Below are positions 1,626-59,971 of a stretch of DNA of 64,000 bases, piece by piece. Source of the DNA: Microcystis wesenbergii NRERC-220 (GTDB lineage: Bacteria > Cyanobacteriota > Cyanobacteriia > Cyanobacteriales > Microcystaceae); the NCBI RefSeq assembly GCF_032027425.1, contig NZ_JAVSJA010000001.1, positions 3,608,001-3,672,000 of the forward strand, written 5' to 3'. Below the pieces are notes generated by a model. It searched no databases. It was not told where the DNA came from and saw nothing but the letters and a program-made list of their open reading frames with translations. The position numbers were made by a program, and so were the translations under genes. How positions within the stretch are numbered: position 1 is the stretch's first letter; each line of letters starts with the position of its first letter.

Positions 1626-2474
1626 ATGCCACAACGCCAGACTTTTACCAATAACTCGATGGCAATTTCCTATTTACAATGGAGCGATCGAGGTATGCCT
1701 CTATTATTATTGCACGGCATGGCGGATCATGCTTTGGTTTGGTCAAGTTTGGGCGATTATTTAAGCTCAAATTATCAAGTTATTGCCCCAGATTTGCGGG
1801 GACATGGGGAAAGCGATAAACCGGCAACTGGTTATCACTTTCAGGATTATATCGGCGATTTAAGGGCTTTAATTAATCATTTAGGTTGGAGGCAAGCACA
1901 TATTTTAGGTCATTCTTGGAGTGCTAAAATAGCGGCAATTTGGGCAACTCAACAGCCGGAAGTATTTAAGAGTTTAATTTTAGTCGATCCCTTTTTTATC
2001 GATAAAATGCCTAGTTGGATGAGGATAACTTTTCCAATTCTCTATCAAGTTTTGCCATTTTTAAAGATTACTCGTTCCTTTGATAGTTATCAGAGCATAG
2101 AAGCGATCGCTCGTCAATTAAAACAATATAAAGGTTGGTCAAATTTACAGCAAGAGGTGTTTAAAAATGCCATCGAACAAAAAGCTGATGGCAGTTGGAG
2201 CAGTAAATTTACTTTATCAGCACGCGGGGAAATTTTTGAGGATGTCATGGGGTTTGCTGGATTAACTAAAACTTTAGATATTCCCAGTTTATTAATCCTT
2301 CCCCAACAGGGATTAAATCGCACTGCTTGGCAAATTCAATCCTATAAAAAGTATTTAACGTCTCTAGAGATTAAAAAGATACCGGGTAATCATTGGGCAT
2401 TTTTAGGGGAACCTGAAACTTTTAATCAAGCAGTAGGGGAATTTTTATCTGTTCGCGAAAATGACGATGGTTAA
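1626..2474 (+). CDS. Alpha/beta-fold hydrolase
   Basis: A 282-residue alpha/beta hydrolase that differs clearly from its divergent neighbour. LLLLHGMADHALVW (26-39) forms the oxyanion loop, PDLRGHGESDKP (55-66) is the classic strand-4 motif, and GHSWSA (95-100) carries nucleophile Ser97. The distal His lies in PGNHWAFLGEPE. No export signal is seen. The substrate is unknown. A MITE-like repeat begins about 45 nt after its stop codon, so its 3' region is formed largely by repeat sequence. Confidence 0.85.
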   Translation: MPQRQTFTNNSMAISYLQWSDRGMPLLLLHGMADHALVWSSLGDYLSSNYQVIAPDLRGHGESDKPATGYHFQDYIGDLRALINHLGWRQAHILGHSWSAKIAAIWATQQPEVFKSLILVDPFFIDKMPSWMRITFPILYQVLPFLKITRSFDSYQSIEAIARQLKQYKGWSNLQQEVFKNAIEQKADGSWSSKFTLSARGEIFEDVMGFAGLTKTLDIPSLLILPQQGLNRTAWQIQSYKKYLTSLEIKKIPGNHWAFLGEPETFNQAVGEFLSVRENDDG

Positions 2475-2518
2475 TTAGAAGGTAATTGAGCTAATTTTAA
2501 GCTGGATTACGCTGCCCT

Positions 2519-2620
2519 AAGTAGGTAGGTATTAAAAACTTTCAGATACCCCCCTTATCAAGGGGGGCAGAGGGGATCGAACCTAAAATCCATTTTTAAT
2601 TTAATTATAACCAGCTACTT
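2519..2620. mobile_element. MITE-like element, AAGTAGGT family, copy a
   Basis: A 102-bp palindromic element with ends AAGTAGGTAGGT and (reverse complement) AAGTAGCTGGTT and a C6-TTATCAA-G6 core hairpin. Related copies lie at 49018-49110, 50450-50567 and, inverted, 59972-60129. It has no coding capacity. Confidence 0.75.
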
Positions 2621-3794
2621 AACACCCTAAGTTTATATAAATTTCTTCGGCAATATTCCTGCTACCTCCAGACTCTCCCACTCTAATTTTGCCATTCTCT
2701 AAACATCTGTGTAAATAACGAGAATCTGCCAAAATATCGATAATTTTAACCGCAGCATTTTTAAATAAATTTACCTCCGTGGGTTTCTTTCCAATAGTTA
2801 TCACCGATTCCCCTAATAAGCGCATTTGTGCCTCAGCAAAAGGGTAGGTAAATTGGGGACCAAATCCGGGTATTTGTAGGACGGGTTTTCCTAATCCTAC
2901 CGCTTGTTCTACTGCTGTCCCTGCCATGGCTAAACAAGCGTCACAATGGTGTAGAATATCGGCAAAAGCATCACGATAACAGCACACCTTAGCCCCATTT
3001 TTCTCTAATTTTCCCGCTCCTAAATAATGCCATCCCTCTTGTTTAGCTAAATTTTCTAAGTCGGTTTCTCTGATGCTAGGAACGATAGCAGCCCGAAACT
3101 GCATCGGTTTAATTTTAACTATTTCCTCACAGACTTGTAACTGTAAAGCTAAATTACTTAAAGCTTCGGGTAAACGACTCCCCGCTAATAAAGCAATCAT
3201 GGGAATTTGACTATCCAATTCTAAATCTTTACCCGTTGGTGTTAAGACATCCATAATCGGATAACCAGCAAAAATCGCTTTTTTAATACCCCGATTTTGT
3301 AGATCTGTTGCTGTATATTTATCCCTAGTGAAAACCCTCAAACACTTGTCTGATCTCAAACATAATTCTGTCAGTAAAGGTAATTTAATTGTACCTTCGT
3401 AATAACTGGAAGTAGAAACAATAAAAGCCACAAAAGGACGACTGGTTAAGCGAGCGATCGCAATCGGTACGATATCCCCCACTGCTATCAATAAATCACA
3501 ATCCTTGCTAACTTTAAAAGCTGCCTGAATTTGTTTAATAGTTAGACCGATTAATCCCGCCCCAATATCCTTAATCCAATTAAAAGGATTGGTATAAATA
3601 ATTCCCCCCGAGGGCATAGTGGCAGTGGGGGCAATAATAGGTACTGGCAATTTTTGATAAGCTTTTCCCTCTCCCACTAAAGGCAAAGCAGCTATAGATA
3701 ATTGGGGCTGAATTTTTTGTAATTCTCCCACAATTAAACTAGCATTTAAATCCTCGCCATGACCATTACTAAGAAATAAAACCTGTTTAAGCAT
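2619..3794 (-). CDS. Lipid-A-disaccharide synthase-related glycosyltransferase (cyanobacterial LpxB-like)
   Basis: A 391-residue protein that resembles the LpxB-related group found in cyanobacteria, a GT-B-type glycosyltransferase fold. It begins FLSNGHGEDLNA, where LpxB has its GExSGD loop, and has an HHCDACLAMAGTAVEQAVGLGKP segment (positions about 285-307) typical of the nucleotide-sugar-binding C-terminal half. No transmembrane helix or signal is evident. Whether it acts in lipid A synthesis is uncertain, because the group is annotated by similarity only. The start lies 7 nt after the stop of the CbiG-like gene, so the two are probably co-transcribed. Its 3' end touches a MITE-like repeat. 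Confidence 0.75.
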   Translation of the reverse strand: MLKQVLFLSNGHGEDLNASLIVGELQKIQPQLSIAALPLVGEGKAYQKLPVPIIAPTATMPSGGIIYTNPFNWIKDIGAGLIGLTIKQIQAAFKVSKDCDLLIAVGDIVPIAIARLTSRPFVAFIVSTSSYYEGTIKLPLLTELCLRSDKCLRVFTRDKYTATDLQNRGIKKAIFAGYPIMDVLTPTGKDLELDSQIPMIALLAGSRLPEALSNLALQLQVCEEIVKIKPMQFRAAIVPSIRETDLENLAKQEGWHYLGAGKLEKNGAKVCCYRDAFADILHHCDACLAMAGTAVEQAVGLGKPVLQIPGFGPQFTYPFAEAQMRLLGESVITIGKKPTEVNLFKNAAVKIIDILADSRYLHRCLENGKIRVGESGGSRNIAEEIYINLGC

Positions 3795-3801
3795 TGATTG
3801 G

Positions 3802-4275
3802 CTATCCTCTATATTCCCTTGCTGCCAAAGAAACCGCCACCGTCACCGATTTTGCTTCTATTTGCTTGCTGACTAGCAAAGTCTCGCCCATTTTTAAAGC
3901 GGCAGCTTCGGCGACGCTAGGAGTTCCCATGTCCTCGTTGACAATAGCCGAGGGATTGGGGACCTTAATATCTCTCAACTCCTGGGCAGTAAAAGTTTTT
4001 AGGGGCAATCCTTTCTCTTGACAGTAGGCAATTAAACCCCGTTCATCAGCTTTGATGTCAAGGGTGGCGATACCGGCAATAGCGGCTAAAGAGAGGTGAT
4101 AACGCTCAAAAACAGCCCTAATTGCCCTATCTATGACTGCTTTCTCCGTGCCACGGATGCAACCTATGCCTAGCCATAATACTCGTCCATGCCATTGCAC
4201 TTTTGCTGGGGAAGGAGCCGTTTCATCTGGTTTGTCCTTGAACCTGCCATCAATATTATAGCTTTGTGGGTGCAA
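3802..4275 (-). CDS. Cobalamin biosynthesis protein CbiG/CobE C-terminal domain, stand-alone
   Basis: A 157-residue protein matching the CbiG C-terminal (CobE) domain of anaerobic-type corrin ring synthesis. The motif VLWLGIGCIRGTEKA (33-47) is characteristic, followed by AGIATLDIKADERGL and the conserved SVAEAAAL segment. In many cyanobacteria this domain sits in a larger CbiG or is fused to CobJ, so a lone domain is short for the family. The N-terminal 30 residues are poorly conserved in style, and the start could be internal. It lies just upstream of the LpxB-like gene on the same strand; no other cobalamin gene is in the window. Confidence 0.75.
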   Translation of the reverse strand: MHPQSYNIDGRFKDKPDETAPSPAKVQWHGRVLWLGIGCIRGTEKAVIDRAIRAVFERYHLSLAAIAGIATLDIKADERGLIAYCQEKGLPLKTFTAQELRDIKVPNPSAIVNEDMGTPSVAEAAALKMGETLLVSKQIEAKSVTVAVSLAAREYRG

Positions 4276-4335
4276 CCCTCAAACTTAAGCTGAAGCCTAG
4301 CAAATCTACAAAAGAAACTGATCACTGCTGACTGA

Positions 4336-5325
4336 TTAAGCTGTAGCTTCTAAAAATACGCCTAAATTGCGGAATTTTTGATAACGAGATTCGCGCCGTT
4401 GTTGGGGAGTTAACAAAGATAAAGCCTCTAAATTTTCACTAATAGTGGCTTTTAAATTGGCTGCCGCTTTAATCGGATCAGCATGGGCCCCTCTGGAGGG
4501 TTCAGGAACGATCTGATCGATAATATTTAACTCTTTTAAATCTTTTGAGGTAATTTTGAGGGCAACTGCCGCTTTATCGGATTTTTTGGCATCTTTCCAG
4601 AGAATGGCGGCACAAGCTTCGGGAGTCGCCACGGTATAGACAGAATGCTCTAACATTAACAGGCGATCGCCGACCCCAATGCCCAAAGCACCGCCGGAAC
4701 CACCTTCACCAATAACAGTACAAATGATCGGCACATCTAAACGGAACATTTCCCGAAGATTATAGGCGATCGCTTCTCCTTGACCTAATTTTTCCGCTTC
4801 CACCCCCGCCCAGGCGCCGGGGGTGTCAATAAAGGTTAAAATTGGCTGATTAAACTGATGGGCGTGTTCCATTAAACGCATGGCTTTACGATAACCGCCG
4901 GGGGCAGCCATGCCGAAATTTCTAGCCACATTATCCTTAGTATCCCGGCCTTTTTGATGTCCGATAATCACCACGGGACGACCGTTAAAACGGGCAACAC
5001 CACCCACAAGGGCGGGATCGTCGTAACCACCGCGATCACCGTGTAACTCGAACCATTCATCGGTGATGGCTTGAATATAATCTAGGGTACTGGGGCGCCG
5101 GGGATGACGGGCTAATTGTAGCCTTTGGGAAGGGGTGAGATTGCTAAAAATTTCACGACGTAATTGATTAGCTCGTTCGTCTAGTTGACTAATTTGTTCC
5201 GAGACATCCACGCTATTTTCTTGGGCTAATTCTTTAATCTGTTCGATGCGGGATTCTAATTCGTAGAGGGGTTTCTCAAAATCTAGGAGAAAAATCTTTT
5301 TCTCGGTAGTCTCGTTTTTAGTCAT
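4336..5325 (-). CDS. accA: Acetyl-CoA carboxylase carboxyltransferase, alpha subunit
   Basis: Alpha subunit of the carboxyltransferase that moves CO2 from biotin to acetyl-CoA to make malonyl-CoA for fatty-acid synthesis; it acts with AccD. The 329-residue length is normal. An N-terminal helical region ([20 protein letters not shown]) is followed by the crotonase-like carboxyltransferase fold with [20 protein letters not shown], the glycine-rich [11 protein letters not shown] oxyanion region, and [12 protein letters not shown]. It is transcribed divergently from the aminopropyltransferase gene across a 174-nt gap. FabZ, which acts in the same pathway, lies far away at 61991. Confidence 0.95.
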
Positions 5326-55028: not shown

Positions 55029-55319
55029 ATGAACGATAAAAAATACGGTACTGCTCCCAGTCATACTCAAGCGTGGATTTTTCAAACTTGGTTATCTTTT
55101 ATTGTCTCTATTTCCGCCACTTCTTTAGGGGTTGTTTATCTGCCGGTAGATGGGTGGATTAAAGGTTATTTAGGCATGGGTTTACTATTTACTGTCGGTT
55201 CCACCATTAATTTATCAAAAACTGTCCGCGATGTGGAAGAATCTAAACGCTTAATTAATCGCATTGATGAAGCAAAGTTAGAACGGATATTGAGTCAGTA
55301 CGATCCCTATAAGGAGTAG
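55029..55319 (+). CDS. YiaA/YiaB-family inner membrane protein
   Basis: A 96-residue protein with two transmembrane helices (WLSFIVSISATSLGVVYLPV and GYLGMGLLFTVGSTINLSKT), which is the YiaAB two-helix domain. A charged C-terminal helix (VEESKRLINRIDEAKLERIL) follows. Function is unknown. An AGGAG lies 8-10 nt before the ATG. The region after it is dominated by inserted elements. Confidence 0.8.
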   Translation: MNDKKYGTAPSHTQAWIFQTWLSFIVSISATSLGVVYLPVDGWIKGYLGMGLLFTVGSTINLSKTVRDVEESKRLINRIDEAKLERILSQYDPYKE

Positions 55320-55390: not shown

Positions 55391-55608
55391 TGGGGGCTGC
55401 TGAAAAAGTTTTTCGTGGGGGCAGGGTGTGGGGTGTGGGGTGTGGGGTGTGGGGTTTTACCCATTTTCAGGTGATCAATTACCTAATTTTCAGGGAAAAA
55501 ATCCCTAAATTTTCCCCCCAATCACTCCAATGGTAGGCACTTTTTCAGGGAAAAAAAGTCTAAAAGCCTTATCCAACAAGGTTTTTATATTTATTCAGCA
55601 AACCCTAT
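55391..55608. mobile_element. MITE-like element, GGGTTTGCTGAA family, copy b (inverted)
   Basis: About 214 bp in the opposite orientation to copy a, with a GGGTGTG heptamer run (about 55426-55456) inside and TA at the right boundary. Two bases separate it from the next element. Confidence 0.78.
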
Positions 55609-55610
55609 AT

Positions 55611-55798
55611 GGTTCTTCGTTACTTGGTATGATTCGATCAGGGGGCATAAATCGACTAAATCCTTATAGGGCAAGAGACTCAATTGATTAGCTCGTTCTA
55701 GATAGAAAACAATTGGCCAAAATCGAAGCAATGTCTTTCTGTGTAAGGGTTTTATCCTTTATAACCCCCCTCCATTGCATAACACAAACCGAAGAACC
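55611..55798. mobile_element. MITE-like element, GGTTCTTCG family, copy b (inverted)
   Basis: About 188 bp with ends GGTTCTTCGTTACTTGG and (reverse complement) CGGTTCTTCGGTTTGTG. It ends 6 nt before the coq4 start codon and so replaces the normal leader. Confidence 0.78.
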
Positions 55799-55928
55799 GT
55801 TTATATGCTATTCACAACTAATCTAATCAGTGTGACCAAAGGAATAATTTCTCTTTTACAAAATCCCGGTAATACGCTGTCTGTATATGATATTGAAGAT
55901 GGACTAAAAGAGAGTTGGTTACAGCGAT

Positions 55929-56019
55929 TAAGCTAAACGGCTTTTACTTCGGATCACCGATATAGACTCCAAAAGGGTTATAGCTGTTGGATCATGCAGG
56001 TTAAGCGCCGTTTAGCTTA
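55929..56019. mobile_element. 89-bp MITE inserted in coq4 at TA
   Basis: TIRs TAAGCTAAACGGC (55929-55941) and GCCGTTTAGCTTA (56007-56019) include the duplicated TA. Removing 55931-56019 restores the codons CGA TTA TCT in frame with coq4. This precise restoration proves an insertion at TA, as for Tc1/IS630-type elements. Confidence 0.88.
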
Positions 56020-56034
56020 TCTTTGCAATATGTT

Positions 56035-56045
56035 AAAAGCGATCG
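56035..56045 (+). repeat. Left direct repeat AAAAGCGATCG of the 3.4-kb insertion
   Basis: Identical to 59443-59453. The coq4 frame crosses both copies, reading Lys-Ser-Asp. The core is a HIP1 half (GCGATCG). Confidence 0.88.
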
Positions 56046-56047
56046 GG

Positions 56048-56165
56048 AGCATCTCACCTTTGTAACTCCTAAATTAAGTTTTATGTCAAGCTATTTTGAA
56101 AGCCTTGCTAGAAGCAAGTTTCATCGACAAGTATAATTACTCACTTGCATAAATGAGATGCCTCC
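56048..56165. mobile_element. Small element or IS remnant with GCATCTCA ends
   Basis: The left part AGCATCTCACCTTTGTAA and the reverse complement of the right part GGCATCTCATTTATGCAA are similar, around about 110 bp of non-coding sequence. It is at the left end of the 3.4-kb insertion. Confidence 0.5.
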
Positions 56166-56203
56166 TCCCTAACAAATAAACAAACCAATAGATACTTGAG
56201 GCA

Positions 56204-56386
56204 ATGATGATTGCAGAATTAAATACCCGGTTAGAAGCTCACGAAAAAACAACCGAAGAGATAAGGGTACGGAAAGAAGATATCGACCGGCAGTCGGCCG
56301 AGTTCCACCAGTGGATGACCAGAATCAAAGCAAGGCTGGATGCAATCGCAGGCAAGATCGAACGGGCCAAAAACAACACCAAGTAG
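56204..56386 (+). CDS. Small coiled-coil protein, paralog 1
   Basis: A 60-residue helical, charged protein: MMIAELNTRLEAHEKTTEEI then RVRKEDIDRQ and KARLDAIAGKIERAKNNTK. A near-identical paralog lies at 57228. The two frames differ at about ten codons, five of them amino-acid changes. Similarity starts about 16 nt before the ATG. Its stop codon overlaps the TA of a MITE inserted right after it. Family unknown; it could be a fragment or a genuine small gene. It is inside the coq4 insertion. Confidence 0.6.
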   Translation: MMIAELNTRLEAHEKTTEEIRVRKEDIDRQSAEFHQWMTRIKARLDAIAGKIERAKNNTK

Positions 56387-56587
56387 GGTTTGTGGCAAAA
56401 AGTTTTTCCTGGGGGCAGGGTGTGGGGTGTGGGGTTTTACCAGTTTTGAGGTGGCCAATTACCTAATTTTCAGGGAAAAAGTGCCTAAATTTCCCCCCGA
56501 TCACTCCCATATCCAGTACTTTTTGATTGACAAAAGGTCTAAAAGTTTTACCCAACAAGGTTTTTAGATTTATTCAGCAAGCCCTAA
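56383..56587. mobile_element. MITE-like element, GGGTTTGCTGAA family, copy c (inverted)
   Basis: About 201 bp between TA dinucleotides. The left end reads GGGTTTGTGGCAAAAAG and the right end (reverse complement) GGGCTTGCTGAATAAATC. It is nested inside the 3.4-kb coq4 insertion, immediately after paralog 1. Confidence 0.8.
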
Positions 56588-56853
56588 GTAAGCTTTCTTG
56601 GGCATTTTATCTCCCTGTCTTTAACGCTCTTGGAGGGAGTCTGGCAAAAGTCTTACAGTCTCTAAACCCTAGCTCTCTTATGGAGTAAGCCTTCAAGCTA
56701 TCGCTAACTAACAGAAACCCGAAATTTGAGTTTTTATTAGAAAAAAAGTTAGCGATCACTTGTCAACCAAGGGTTTCAGAATCTGGATTCGGTCAGGGAT
56801 TTCCGAAAGTTCCAGAAGAGCGTTAAGTAGTCGTGCAAAATTAATTTCCTAGT

Positions 56854-56915
56854 CGAGACTCCGAGACTCCGAGACTCCGAGACTCCGAGACTCCGAGACT
56901 CCGAGACTCCGAGAC
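56854..56915. repeat. Octanucleotide tandem array (CGAGACTC)n
   Basis: About 7.5 perfect copies. It differs from the other arrays of the window, which have a 7-nt period. Confidence 0.92.
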
Positions 56916-57089
56916 AGCTATCAGGGATCAGATTTGAATTTTTAGTTCACTGTTTACTGGTCACAGCAAAAAGCTTTTGGCTGACGGGTGACGGCTTGGA
57001 TGTGTAATTAATTTTGCTTAGGTACTTAATCGTTTTATCATAACAGGATTTAGTATTAGGTGCTGCGTGACGGTGAACAGCAGGGAAAA

Positions 57090-57143
57090 CCAAATCGTCG
57101 GGATCGGTATCGCCGTCCATTTTACGGTGGTGAGGATGTCAAC
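57090..57143 (+). mobile_element. Solo right end of an IS605/TnpB-type element
   Basis: CGCCGTCC-(N)-GGTGGTGAGGATGTCAAC resembles the right end of the TnpB element at 22671-22705 (CACCGTCC...GGCGGTGAGGATGTCAAC), and the AAATCGT block upstream is also shared. No tnpB is attached. Confidence 0.75.
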
Positions 57144-57227
57144 GGTAAAATTTCCGTAAAGAGGTTGATTCCTATTGATTTATATATCAAGTTCCCTGCC
57201 GCAAAGAATCGATAGATACTTGAGGCA

Positions 57228-57410
57228 ATGATGATTGAAGAATTAAATACCCGGTTAGAAGCTCACGAAAAAACAACCGAAGAGATAAGGGAACGGAAGG
57301 AAGCTATCGACCGGCAGTCGGCCGAGTTTAACCAATGGATGACCGTAATCAAAGCAAGGTTGGATGCGATCGCAGGCAAGATCGAACGGGCCAAAAACAA
57401 CACCAAGTAG
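57228..57410 (+). CDS. Small coiled-coil protein, paralog 2
   Basis: A 60-residue protein that differs from paralog 1 (56204) at only five positions (A4E, V22E, D26A, H35N, R40V). Both start after the same GATAGATACTTGAGGCAATG leader. It lies about 240 nt upstream of psbA on the same strand, with the psbA promoter in between, so it is probably separate. The duplicated pair surrounds MITE copy c and the IS605 right end. Unknown function. Confidence 0.6.
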   Translation: MMIEELNTRLEAHEKTTEEIRERKEAIDRQSAEFNQWMTVIKARLDAIAGKIERAKNNTK

Positions 57411-57566
57411 AGCGAACGCAAAGCGCTCGCTACGCCAGATCGCATTCTCTCGCTCAAAGGAAAAGGTGCTTCATGAGTTTATTGTCGGCAAATCGATCGC
57501 TTCGACCAACTAACCGAACATAAGCCCACCTTATCATTCCGACAAGAAATACTTTTGTCAAACCCC

Positions 57567-57595
57567 TTTACAAACCGTTACAAATTCCTTAAGAT
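57567..57595 (+). promoter_or_regulatory. psbA promoter with HLR1 element
   Basis: TTTACA (57567-57572), 17 nt, TAAGAT (57590-57595). Overlapping the -35, TTTACAAA-CC-GTTACAAA (57567-57584) matches the HLR1 consensus, two (G/T)TTACA(T/A)(T/A) units spaced by 2 nt, bound by the response regulator RpaB. Confidence 0.8.
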
Positions 57596-57648
57596 AGAGA
57601 CATCATCACTCAATCGTACCTCGATAACTTAATAGGAATCATAAACCA

Positions 57649-58731
57649 ATGACCACCACTCTACAACAGCGCGAGAGCGCTTCCCTGTGGGAGCAGTTCT
57701 GTCAGTGGATCACCAGCACCAACAACCGTCTCTATATCGGTTGGTTCGGTGTGATCATGATCCCCACCCTGCTCACCGCCACCACCTGCTTCATCATCGC
57801 CTTTATCGCCGCTCCTCCCGTAGATATCGACGGTATTCGCGAGCCTGTAGCTGGTTCTCTACTCTACGGAAACAACATCATCTCTGGTGCTGTTGTTCCC
57901 TCTTCCAACGCGATTGGACTCCACTTCTACCCCATCTGGGAAGCTGCTTCCTTAGATGAGTGGTTATACAACGGTGGTCCCTACCAGTTAGTCATTTTCC
58001 ACTTCTTACTAGGTGTCTTCTGCTACCTCGGTCGTCAGTGGGAACTGTCTTTCCGTTTAGGAATGCGTCCTTGGATCTGTGTTGCCTACTCCGCACCTGT
58101 ATCCGCCGCTACTGCTGTATTCTTAATCTATCCCATCGGACAAGGTTCTTTCTCCGACGGTATGCCTTTAGGAATCTCTGGAACCTTCAACTTTATGTTC
58201 GTGTTCCAAGCAGAACATAACATTCTGATGCACCCCTTCCATATGTTAGGTGTTGCTGGTGTGTTCGGCGGTTCCTTGTTCTCCGCGATGCACGGTTCGC
58301 TAGTAACTTCTTCTTTAGTGCGTGAAACCACTGAAATCGAATCTCAGAACTACGGTTACAAATTCGGTCAAGAAGAAGAAACCTACAATATCGTTGCCGC
58401 TCACGGTTACTTCGGACGTTTAATCTTCCAATACGCTTCTTTCAATAATAGCCGTTCTCTGCACTTCTTCTTAGGTGCATGGCCGGTAATCGGTATCTGG
58501 TTTACCGCAATGGGTGTTAGCACCATGGCGTTCAACCTCAATGGTTTTAACTTCAACCAGTCGATTCTCGATTCTCAAGGTCGTGTAATTGGTACTTGGG
58601 CCGATGTGTTAAACCGCGCTGGTATCGGTATGGAAGTAATGCACGAGCGCAATGCTCACAACTTCCCCTTAGACTTGGCTAGTGGTGAACAGGCTCCTGT
58701 GGCTCTGATTGCTCCCGCTATTAATGGTTAA
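57649..58731 (+). CDS. psbA: Photosystem II D1 protein
   Basis: A 360-residue reaction-centre protein that binds P680, TyrZ, the Mn4CaO5 cluster and the QB quinone. All key residues are in register: Gln130, Tyr161 (TyrZ), Asp170, Glu189, His190, His198 and the C-terminal cleavage site after Ala344. Gln130 (not Glu) marks the standard, low-light D1 form. Five membrane helices are present. An HLR1 promoter and a strong terminator make it a self-contained unit. It lies within the segment that splits coq4 and is probably one of several psbA copies in the genome. Confidence 0.97.
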
Positions 58732-58751
58732 TTCCTAGTCTGAACGAAAAG

Positions 58752-58777
58752 GCACTCCCGCGAGGGGGTGCTTTTTT
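58752..58777 (+). terminator. Rho-independent terminator of psbA
   Basis: Stem GCACTCCC (58752-58759) and GGGGGTGC (58764-58771) around GCGA, followed by six T. It starts 20 nt after the psbA stop. Confidence 0.93.
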
Positions 58778-58823
58778 GTTGTTAGAATTATGATATAACT
58801 CAATGTTAAATGGAGTTAATTTT

Positions 58824-59054
58824 ATGATATCCCCTCAAATTATTGAACTGGAACAAAAGTTACGAGACTGTTCTCTTGAAGATAAAAAATGGTTATTGGA
58901 GCAGTTACATCAACAATTAGGATTGAATGATCAAAAAACAACTAAACAACAATTAATAGATAGTTGGAATGAAGCTTATAGTGATGGATTGGACGAATCA
59001 GAAACTTTGATGTTAGAGGGAATACGCCATCATCAACGCCAATTATCTGAGTAA
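58824..59054 (+). CDS. Putative antitoxin of a MazEF-type pair
   Basis: A 76-residue protein with a helical N-terminus (MISPQIIELEQKLRDCSLED) and an acidic tail (SWNEAYSDGLDESETLMLEG). ATG 58824 is preferred to ATG 58803, as GGAG lies 8 nt before it. It ends 2 nt before a MazF-type gene, the typical toxin-antitoxin layout. Classification as antitoxin rests on context and size; the DNA-binding fold is not evident. It is inside the coq4 insertion, downstream of psbA. Confidence 0.7.
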   Translation: MISPQIIELEQKLRDCSLEDKKWLLEQLHQQLGLNDQKTTKQQLIDSWNEAYSDGLDESETLMLEGIRHHQRQLSE

Positions 59055-59056
59055 AT

Positions 59057-59413
59057 ATGACGATTTTTCAAGGTGAGATTTATTGGATTGATTTAGGAGA
59101 ACCACAAGGTTCTGAACCTGCTTATCTTCGTCCTTGTGTTGTGGTGCAAAATGATGCTCTGAATCAGTCACAAATTGGGACGGTTATTGTGTGTCCATTA
59201 ACAACCAATTTGAGACGAGCAAAAGCTATTGGTAATGTTTTATTGAATGAGGGTGAAGGGAATTTACCTGAATCCAGTGTTGTTAATGTTTCACAGGTTT
59301 TCACGGTTGATAAGCGTCTTTTAACGGAGTCTATCGGAAGACTTTCTCAGGAAAAAATCAAATTAATTATTCAGGGAATTAAGTTGGTTATTGAACCTCA
59401 AGAACTCGAATAA
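59057..59413 (+). CDS. MazF/PemK-type toxin (endoribonuclease)
   Basis: A 118-residue member of the MazF/PemK family of RNA-cleaving toxins. GEIYWIDLGEPQGSEPAYLRPCVVVQND is the conserved N-terminal block that includes the catalytic Arg (LRPCVVVQ), followed by GTVIVCPLTTNLRRAK and SVVNVSQVFTVDKRLL. It is complete and preceded by its antitoxin. The pair lies between the psbA terminator and the right coq4 breakpoint, so it would help keep the segment in the genome. Confidence 0.88.
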   Translation: MTIFQGEIYWIDLGEPQGSEPAYLRPCVVVQNDALNQSQIGTVIVCPLTTNLRRAKAIGNVLLNEGEGNLPESSVVNVSQVFTVDKRLLTESIGRLSQEKIKLIIQGIKLVIEPQELE

Positions 59414-59442
59414 TAGGGGGTTATAAAATATAAAATTATAAA

Positions 59443-59453
59443 AAAAGCGATCG
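59443..59453 (+). repeat. Right direct repeat AAAAGCGATCG of the 3.4-kb insertion
   Basis: Identical to 56035-56045. The sequence beyond it continues the coq4 frame as Arg-Ala-Thr-Ala-Gln. Confidence 0.88.
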
Positions 59454-59971
59454 AGCTACCGCCCAAATAATTGCCCAAAGATATCTGGCCGCTAGTCCCT
59501 GTTTAGAAACCTTGCTAAAACTCCCAGAGGATTCCCAGGGTTATCATTATGCTACTCACCTAATTAGTCTCAATTTTGATCCTAATTTTTATCGGTTTAT
59601 TCAGGTCAATTCTGATACAGATTATCTGCTGCTTCGCCTACGGCAAACTCACGATATCTGGCATATAGTCACGGGTTTTGGTGTCGATGGCATGGGAGAA
59701 TTGCAACTGAAAGCTTTTGAATTAAGTCAAACTCGTCGCCCTCTAGCTATTGTCATACTTTTAGGGGGATTATTGGGAGCTTTATTTTCTTCCCCACTTT
59801 CCTTACATTCTCTCTGGGAAGAGATTGTCATCGCCTATAATTTGGGCAAAAATACTCGACCTTTTTTAGCGCAAAAATGGGAACTAGCTTGGGAGAAATC
59901 CCTGGTAGTTTGGCGGCAAGAATTGGCGATTGTCCACTCGAACCTAGAAAATTAATTTTGCTGGACTACTT

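What the first reader, a model, noticed from the sequence alone, without database searches (positions are those of the whole stretch)
55805..59955. A 3.4-kb psbA-plus-toxin-antitoxin segment inserted in a coq4-like gene, with an 11-bp HIP1-containing direct repeat
Seen directly: coq4 coding sequence stops at 56045 and resumes at 59443 with AAAAGCGATCG present at both edges, and the two parts rejoin in frame (Lys-Ser-Asp-Arg-Ala-Thr-Ala-Gln) once the segment is removed. The segment carries two near-identical 60-codon ORFs, an IS605-type right end, a psbA with its own HLR1 promoter and terminator, and a MazEF-type pair. No transposase is present. Inference: a psbA gene moved as a self-contained cassette, either by recombination at HIP1-like sites or by a transposase acting in trans, and the toxin-antitoxin pair may stabilise it. 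An 11-bp repeat is long for a target duplication of most IS families, so the HIP1 core may mark the mechanism.
Basis: partly seen in the sequence, partly recalled or inferred. Interest (0 to 1): 0.85.

Follow-up and report, generated by a model that had tools for sequence, protein, structure and literature searches.

The report
Photosynthesis gene jumped behind a MITE
In some Microcystis strains an extra copy of the photosystem gene psbA, with a toxin-antitoxin-like pair beside it, lies inside another gene, and one edge of the insert is the end of a tiny mobile DNA element that may have carried it there.

Summary
The insertion is real. Of 12 Microcystis genomes, 5 keep an uninterrupted coq4 with one AAAAGCGATCG. 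Two, this one and G001, carry the psbA-mazEF segment with the same two edges. G008 shows the left edge only (its contig ends in psbA), G010 holds a rearranged derivative, and in 3 no coq4 was found.

The left edge is the left end of a 121-bp MITE (GGGAGCATCTCA…). Its family shares these ends with a 1.26-kb ISKra4-family insertion sequence; 41 of 63 copies examined have an 8-9-bp target duplication. The 11-bp repeat reads as such a duplication (AAGCGATC or AAAGCGATC) plus chance matches; its last G is the MITE's first base. None of the 41 duplications contains GATC, so HIP1 is probably incidental. The duplication is missing at the MITE's own, imperfect right end and lies 3.3 kb away, behind psbA-mazEF.

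Best reading: ISKra4-type transposition used the MITE's left end and a non-canonical right end and carried psbA-mazEF along. The shared insert was about 2.37 kb; this strain probably gained about 1 kb later. psbA-mazEF also sits together elsewhere, so the toxin pair looks like an inherited neighbour. Neither a donor nor a MITE-only intermediate was found.

The parts
55029..55319 (+). yiaAB-like gene, left neighbour of coq4
   Evidence: PF05360 E 4.9e-22; same neighbour at the five empty sites
55393..55798 (.). two nested repeated elements just upstream of coq4, at this place only in this genome among those compared: 218 bp (55393-55610) and a 188-bp GGTTCTTCG element (55611-55798)
   Evidence: absent here from the five empty sites and from G001, 9-bp overlap at the borders; the 188-bp element looks like the 187-nt MITE with GGCTCTTCG ends that PMC11448079 ties to ISL3 (passages; sequences not aligned to that paper's)
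55808..55930 (+). coq4, 5' part
   Evidence: 93.9-96.2% identical to the other alleles aligned
55931..56016 (.). 86-bp inverted-repeat element inside coq4, between TA dinucleotides, bringing an in-frame stop at 55934-55936
   Evidence: inverted repeat I8; absent from the five empty sites and from G001
56017..56044 (+). coq4 resumed; last 8-9 bases (56036/56037-56044) are the left copy of the proposed target duplication AAGCGATC or AAAGCGATC
   Evidence: empty-site comparison
56045..56165 (+). 121-bp MITE with ISKra4-type ends: GGGAGCATCTCA at left, imperfect right end TGAGATGCCTCC (or 125 bp if the following TCCC belongs to it)
   Evidence: family matches in 12 of 12 genomes; ends and duplications tabulated
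56166..56187 (+). short stretch between MITE and 60-codon ORF (TCCCTAACAAATAAACAAACC), matched exactly only at this insert in G000, G001, G008 and G010
   Evidence: pattern search of 12 genomes; one further 3-mismatch hit in G005
56204..56386 (+). 60-codon ORF, copy 1
56387..57206 (+). stack of repeated elements plus a stretch (57064-57206) that precedes the 60-codon ORF in G004 and G007; part of the 1,024 bp found in no other copy of the insert
57228..57410 (+). 60-codon ORF, copy 2
57649..58731 (+). psbA, 360-aa D1 protein
   Evidence: TIGR01151, 805 bits; also intact in G001's insert
58803..59054 (+). 83-aa ORF in antitoxin position
   Evidence: no Pfam hit to 0.01 and no NCBIfam hit to 0.1
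59057..59413 (+). MazF/PemK-type toxin gene, 118 aa
   Evidence: PF02452 E 5.7e-28; also intact in G001's insert
59429..59442 (+). AT-rich right tail, not in the seven mazEF-bearing loci printed, whose similarity ends at 59425-59428
59443..59453 (+). right 11-mer; 59444/59445-59452 is the second copy of the proposed 8-9-bp target duplication
59455..59955 (+). coq4, 3' part
   Evidence: PF05019 E 7.6e-23

Best explanation
A non-autonomous ISKra4-type element (121-bp MITE) lay next to a 60-codon ORF and psbA-mazEF in an unsampled donor. An ISKra4-family transposase acting in trans used the MITE's left end but not its imperfect right end; it took a surrogate right end about 2.37 kb away, behind mazF, and inserted the whole stretch into coq4, copying 8-9 bp of target (AAGCGATC or AAAGCGATC). 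Shown: the empty and occupied sites, the left edge at the MITE end, the direct repeat displaced to the far edge, the family's usual duplication length, and ISKra4 genes in the genomes. Inferred: that MITE and cargo entered together, that the transposase did it, and the use of a surrogate right end. Later, this strain's copy gained about 1 kb and the coq4 region was hit by further small elements.
For: Empty sites in 5 of 12 genomes with one AAAAGCGATCG. Same left and right edges in G001, same left edge in G008. The left edge is the first base of the MITE. Of 63 distinct copies of the family, 41 have an 8-9-bp duplication with at most one mismatch: 12 exact 9, 18 exact 8, 11 with one mismatch. 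The coq4 copy lacks it at its own right end, and its left 9-mer recurs at +3278, the segment's right edge. ISs of 1262-1271 bp with the same ends include one with an ISKra4 transposase (L130, NF033572, E 5.5e-78); ISKra4-family matches occur in 12 of 12 genomes, over the cut-off in 6. In G001 a 5.63-kb unit bounded by such an IS and an inverted 182-bp MITE has an 8-bp duplication at its outer ends, so these ends appear to move multi-kb cargo in the genus. In G010 one copy of a 1.56-kb inverted duplication stops exactly at the MITE's left end.
Against: The right end of the segment does not resemble the MITE end. No donor with MITE-ORF-psbA-mazEF outside coq4 was found in 12 genomes. A far repeat of 8-9 bp is weak by itself: random 8-mers and 9-mers recur within 5.8 kb in 14% and 5% of trials, and among 20 further G001 loci (one largely masked) 4 showed far repeats that look like chance (L248, L251, L253, L263) and none a convincing second one-ended case. 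In one search most of the other copies could be followed for only about 1.5 kb or less. The AT-rich tail and the short stretch after the MITE could be repair filler, which fits capture of a fragment better.
Confidence: 0.5

Rival explanations
1. Two steps: the MITE first entered coq4 with its ordinary 8-9-bp duplication; later a psbA-mazEF fragment was captured exactly at the MITE's right end, for example in repair of a break made there by the transposase or through one-sided homology during natural transformation.
For: Short unmatched stretches at both inner junctions (TAACAAATAAACAAACC; TATAAAATTATAAAA) look like repair filler. MITE edges here do receive further insertions: a 188-bp MITE sits in G001's right-hand 11-mer, and a second element sits at the left edge of the 188-bp MITE upstream of coq4.
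Against: No MITE-only coq4 allele among the 12 genomes. Capture would have to hit the exact border between MITE and target duplication.
Confidence: 0.28
2. A composite of two MITEs (or IS plus MITE) carried psbA-mazEF between two proper ends, and the right-hand element was later lost.
For: A composite of this kind with an 8-bp duplication exists in G001. Composites bounded by Tn3-derived MITEs are described (PMC13367494, start of abstract in search listing).
Against: No remnant of a MITE end next to the right repeat in G000 or G001; its loss would have to be exact.
Confidence: 0.14
3. Recombination at HIP1-like sites inserted the segment.
For: The direct repeat includes GCGATCG; only 0.72% of 9-mers in the window hold GCGATC or GATCGC, so the coincidence is uncommon.
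Against: The left edge falls on a MITE end; the repeat fits the length of that family's duplication; seven mazEF-bearing loci have no CGATCG in 350 bases around the corresponding right breakpoint. The true donor is unknown.
Confidence: 0.05

Closest known systems
ISEcp1-type (IS1380) one-ended transposition units
   Same: one genuine end, a variable surrogate far end, host gene carried along, short target duplication (recalled; the listing shows only that the terms occur together)
   Different: here the end belongs to a MITE without transposase and the family is ISKra4; the cargo is a photosynthesis gene
TIME-COMPs and MITEs flanking integrons
   Same: MITEs proposed to move passenger genes with transposase supplied in trans (PMC13367494, start of abstract in listing; PMC10969869, one passage)
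   Different: those have a MITE at both ends; here only at the left
187-nt ISL3-type MITE of Microcystis (PMC11448079, passages)
   Same: MITE insertions breaking Microcystis genes, 8-nt direct repeats; a similar 188-bp element sits upstream of coq4 here and in G001's right edge
   Different: the passages seen describe no passenger gene
psbA multigene family of cyanobacteria
   Same: one more psbA copy, one of six psbA-like matches listed for the own genome
   Different: its flanks suggest how the copy arrived

Membership tests
ISKra4-type MITE | terminal inverted repeats shared with an ISKra4-family insertion sequence | tested here: met
   GGGAGCATCTCA ends on the MITE and on 1262-1271-bp ISs; transposase of L130 hits NF033572, E 5.5e-78
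ISKra4-type MITE | 8-9-bp target duplication flush with both ends of this copy | tested here: not met
   41 of 63 copies have it; this copy has no flush repeat, its left 9-mer recurs at the right edge of the segment
One-ended transposition unit | one genuine end plus a dissimilar far end, with a direct repeat of target at both edges | tested here: met
One-ended transposition unit | donor locus with the same contiguous unit | tested here: inconclusive
   not found in 12 genomes, several of them drafts; psbA-mazEF without MITE occurs in several
One-ended transposition unit | transposase acts on these ends | not testable with these tools
   needs an in vivo assay
MITE-bounded composite (TIME-COMP-like) | a MITE at each end | tested here: not met
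   no MITE end at the right edge in G000 or G001
HIP1-mediated recombination | HIP1 word at the donor breakpoint | tested here: not met
   seven mazEF-bearing loci, none with CGATCG in 350 bases around the right breakpoint; true donor unknown
MazEF type II toxin-antitoxin | MazF/PemK-family toxin | tested here: met
   PF02452 97.7 bits, cut-off 23.1; the NCBIfam MazF equivalogs stay below their cut-offs
MazEF type II toxin-antitoxin | cognate antitoxin of a known family | tested here: inconclusive
   83-aa ORF directly upstream, no family hit
IS200/IS605 element | an IS605-type end within the segment | tested here: inconclusive
   ends were not modelled; the sites where G010 carries elements with TnpB-like ORFs are uninterrupted in the window

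The most novel reading that the evidence does not exclude
ISKra4-type MITEs can capture and move neighbouring host genes by one-ended transposition, so a transposase-free 121-bp element acts as a gene-moving vector; here it spread a core photosystem II gene with a toxin-antitoxin module within a bloom-forming genus.
Probability: 0.33. Interest if true: 0.6.

Novelty: new variant of a known kind. Interest (0 to 1): 0.42.

Why it matters
psbA occurs in several near-identical copies in these genomes, and how copies arise is seldom visible. Here empty and occupied alleles coexist in one genus and one edge points to a MITE, so a route by which a photosynthesis gene is copied around a genome becomes testable. 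It also warns against reading HIP1-containing repeats as recombination sites without checking for target duplications.

Tried and rejected
HIP1-site recombination: rejected as the leading idea. A toxin-antitoxin pair acquired to stabilise the cassette: not supported, since psbA and mazEF are neighbours elsewhere. A phage or plasmid source: no place in the phage or plasmid collections covers 80% of the segment; of 57 phage records the 10 listed are annotated as psbA/D1, and of 7 plasmid records 6 are annotated as psbA/D1 or Q(B) protein and one has no annotated feature there; one Microcystis plasmid (NIES-2481 p1) carries a psbA near a thermonuclease family gene, with no mazEF annotated in the 11 kb shown. 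Viral contigs: two exact-pattern scans gave 0. Flank trees: mostly unresolved; the occupied alleles do not form one clade, though G008 and G010 pair in the right-flank tree. Whether the stretch after the MITE is donor sequence: if TCCC is counted as donor, 15 of 5000 shuffles reach the score against each of the two G007 loci and 235 of 5000 against the window's second copy; if it is counted as MITE, 2102 to 4831 of 5000 do; so this does not discriminate. Other far-paired ends in G001: one is a MITE split by another IS (L248), one is a composite (L255); the MITE of L251 has a near repeat CTTTTGACAA beside both ends, so its far 8-mer is taken as chance. Rows dropped: loci L150-L216 (the hits, most of them from other genera) were left out of the MITE counts, as were copies with fewer than 12 flanking bases; 'flush' meant an exact 7-10-base match or at most one mismatch in 8 or 9.
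Full report
What was checked. The window lies in a genome of 4.68 Mb in 2 contigs (G000). The tools hold 12 genomes of its genus, one of them (G011) of the same species. Loci from the named collection share contig lengths with some of these and are titled Microcystis aeruginosa, M. wesenbergii, M. novacekii and Microcystis sp.. G001 has the length I recall for M. aeruginosa NIES-843; that name comes from no call.

The insertion. Seven of 12 genomes match the 3' part of coq4 at high identity. Five of them (G002, G004, G005, G009, G011) have an uninterrupted gene with a single AAAAGCGATCG at the place where the window carries the segment; in G002 it encodes 217 aa. G001 carries the segment at the same place with the same left and right edges; its right-hand repeat is itself interrupted by a 188-bp MITE. 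G008 has the same left edge, the MITE, one 60-codon ORF and the start of psbA, where its contig ends; no coq4 3' part was found there. G010 has the MITE and 60-codon ORF joined to a truncated yiaAB copy at 5.165 Mb, a second yiaAB copy 24 kb away where coq4 is broken near its start, and the gene right of coq4 at 1.10 Mb beside another 60-codon ORF and psbA. In G003, G006 and G007 neither coq4 nor its left flank was found, while the right-hand gene was; these are draft assemblies.

Growth after insertion. G001 and G008 have one 60-codon ORF leading into psbA, and G010's derivative has one; the window has two, 1,024 bp apart, with repeated elements and a stretch that precedes the ORF in G004 and G007 between them. 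The shared insert is therefore about 2.37 kb (window 3,397 bp less 1,024) and the extra 1 kb is most simply later. The ORF of G001 looks like copy 1 at its start and copy 2 further on, so a past exchange or a deletion between two copies in that lineage is not excluded. The window's coq4 is further broken by an 86-bp inverted-repeat element and has 406 bp of nested elements upstream.

The left edge. The first 116 or so bases of the segment are a repeat with matches in 12 of 12 genomes. Its copies begin GGGAGCATCTCA and end TGAGATGCTCCC. In the window the copy begins at 56045, the last G of the left 11-mer. Of 63 distinct copies examined (MITEs of about 121 and 182 bp, ISs of 1262-1271 bp), 41 have an 8-9-bp flanking duplication with at most one mismatch, and none of these contains GATC. 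In an earlier count over 40 copies, 25 had a flush repeat; among the 15 without, the coq4 copy has its left 9-mer again at +3278, the segment's right edge, while several others have theirs within 32 bases of the right end. That comparison is limited: most of the others could be followed for 1.5 kb or less. Random 8-mers and 9-mers recur within 5.8 kb in 14% and 5% of trials, so it is the empty sites, not the distance repeat by itself, that show the duplication to be real. The IS with the same ends encodes an ISKra4-family transposase. ISKra4-family matches occur in 12 of 12 genomes, above the family's cut-off in 6; the best own-genome copy has slightly different ends, GGGAGCAAGTCA, and a 9-bp duplication, so which gene would serve this MITE in G000 is not shown.

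The right edge. psbA-mazEF occurs elsewhere: next to a cyanase-like ORF (name from the sequence, not searched) in G000 and G001, and at contig ends or in parts in several others. In seven mazEF-bearing loci, six of them with psbA sequence beside it, similarity to the segment ends at 59425-59428, 14-17 bases before the right 11-mer. There the segment continues TATAAAATTATAAAA and then AAAAGCGATCG; the other loci continue differently and hold no CGATCG in 350 bases around that point. In G000's own copy at 4.04 Mb two small ORFs lie between psbA and mazF and similarity to the antitoxin ORF is incomplete.

Mechanism. These facts make the 11-bp repeat most simply a target duplication of the MITE family's length plus chance matches (A or AA at one side, G at the other). 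They do not decide whether the MITE and cargo came together (best reading, 0.50), or the cargo was captured at a MITE already present (0.28), or a right-hand MITE has been lost (0.14). For cargo moving with ISKra4-type ends there is a precedent in G001: a 5.63-kb unit made of an IS (itself split by another stretch), about 2.95 kb of cargo and an inverted 182-bp MITE, with tgtcaaat at both outer ends. A tentative sign that the MITE's left end stayed active is the 1.56-kb inverted duplication in G010, one copy of which stops exactly at that end. Among 20 further G001 loci followed for about 6 kb no convincing second one-ended case was seen.

Function of the cargo. psbA (360 aa), the 83-aa ORF and mazF (118 aa) are intact in both G000 and G001, so the copy has not decayed. 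Expression was not tested.

Literature. Searches for Microcystis with coq4 (0 papers), with psbA and mazEF (1, a cyanophage review), with psbA, gene duplication and insertion sequences (1), and for ISKra4 with MITE (4) gave no listing that reports this insertion by title or abstract start. Only passages of PMC11448079 and PMC10969869 were read; the library holds only openly licensed papers.

Noticed in passing
L255 201-5829 (G001:C1:2608760-2614960): A 5.63-kb composite: ISKra4-type IS (split), about 2.95 kb of cargo including a caspase-like ORF (name from the sequence, not searched), and an inverted 182-bp MITE, with an 8-bp duplication (tgtcaaat) at the outer ends.
   Followed up: partly
L049 5119-6679 and L241 4132-5692 (G010): A 1.56-kb inverted duplication, 99.1% identical and about 24 kb apart, one copy of which stops exactly at the MITE's left end.
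   Followed up: partly
window 55393-55798 and 55931-56016: Further small-element insertions beside and in coq4, a nested pair and an 86-bp element between TA dinucleotides, absent from the five empty sites and G001 at these places.
   Followed up: yes
L046 7785-10282 (G000:C1:4032000-4048000): The own genome's other psbA-mazF locus has two small ORFs between psbA and mazF, and similarity to the antitoxin ORF is incomplete.
   Followed up: partly
L246 (NZ_CP025929.1, plasmid p1 of Microcystis aeruginosa NIES-2481): A plasmid-borne psbA near a thermonuclease family gene, with 79% similarity over 202 bases to the segment's psbA upstream region and start.
   Followed up: partly
L008, L009 (G009, G011): A second, about 40% identical coq4 homologue in two genomes that also keep the first.
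   Followed up: no
window 56854-56915: 7.8 tandem copies of CGAGACTC inside a roughly 206-bp repeated element.
   Followed up: no
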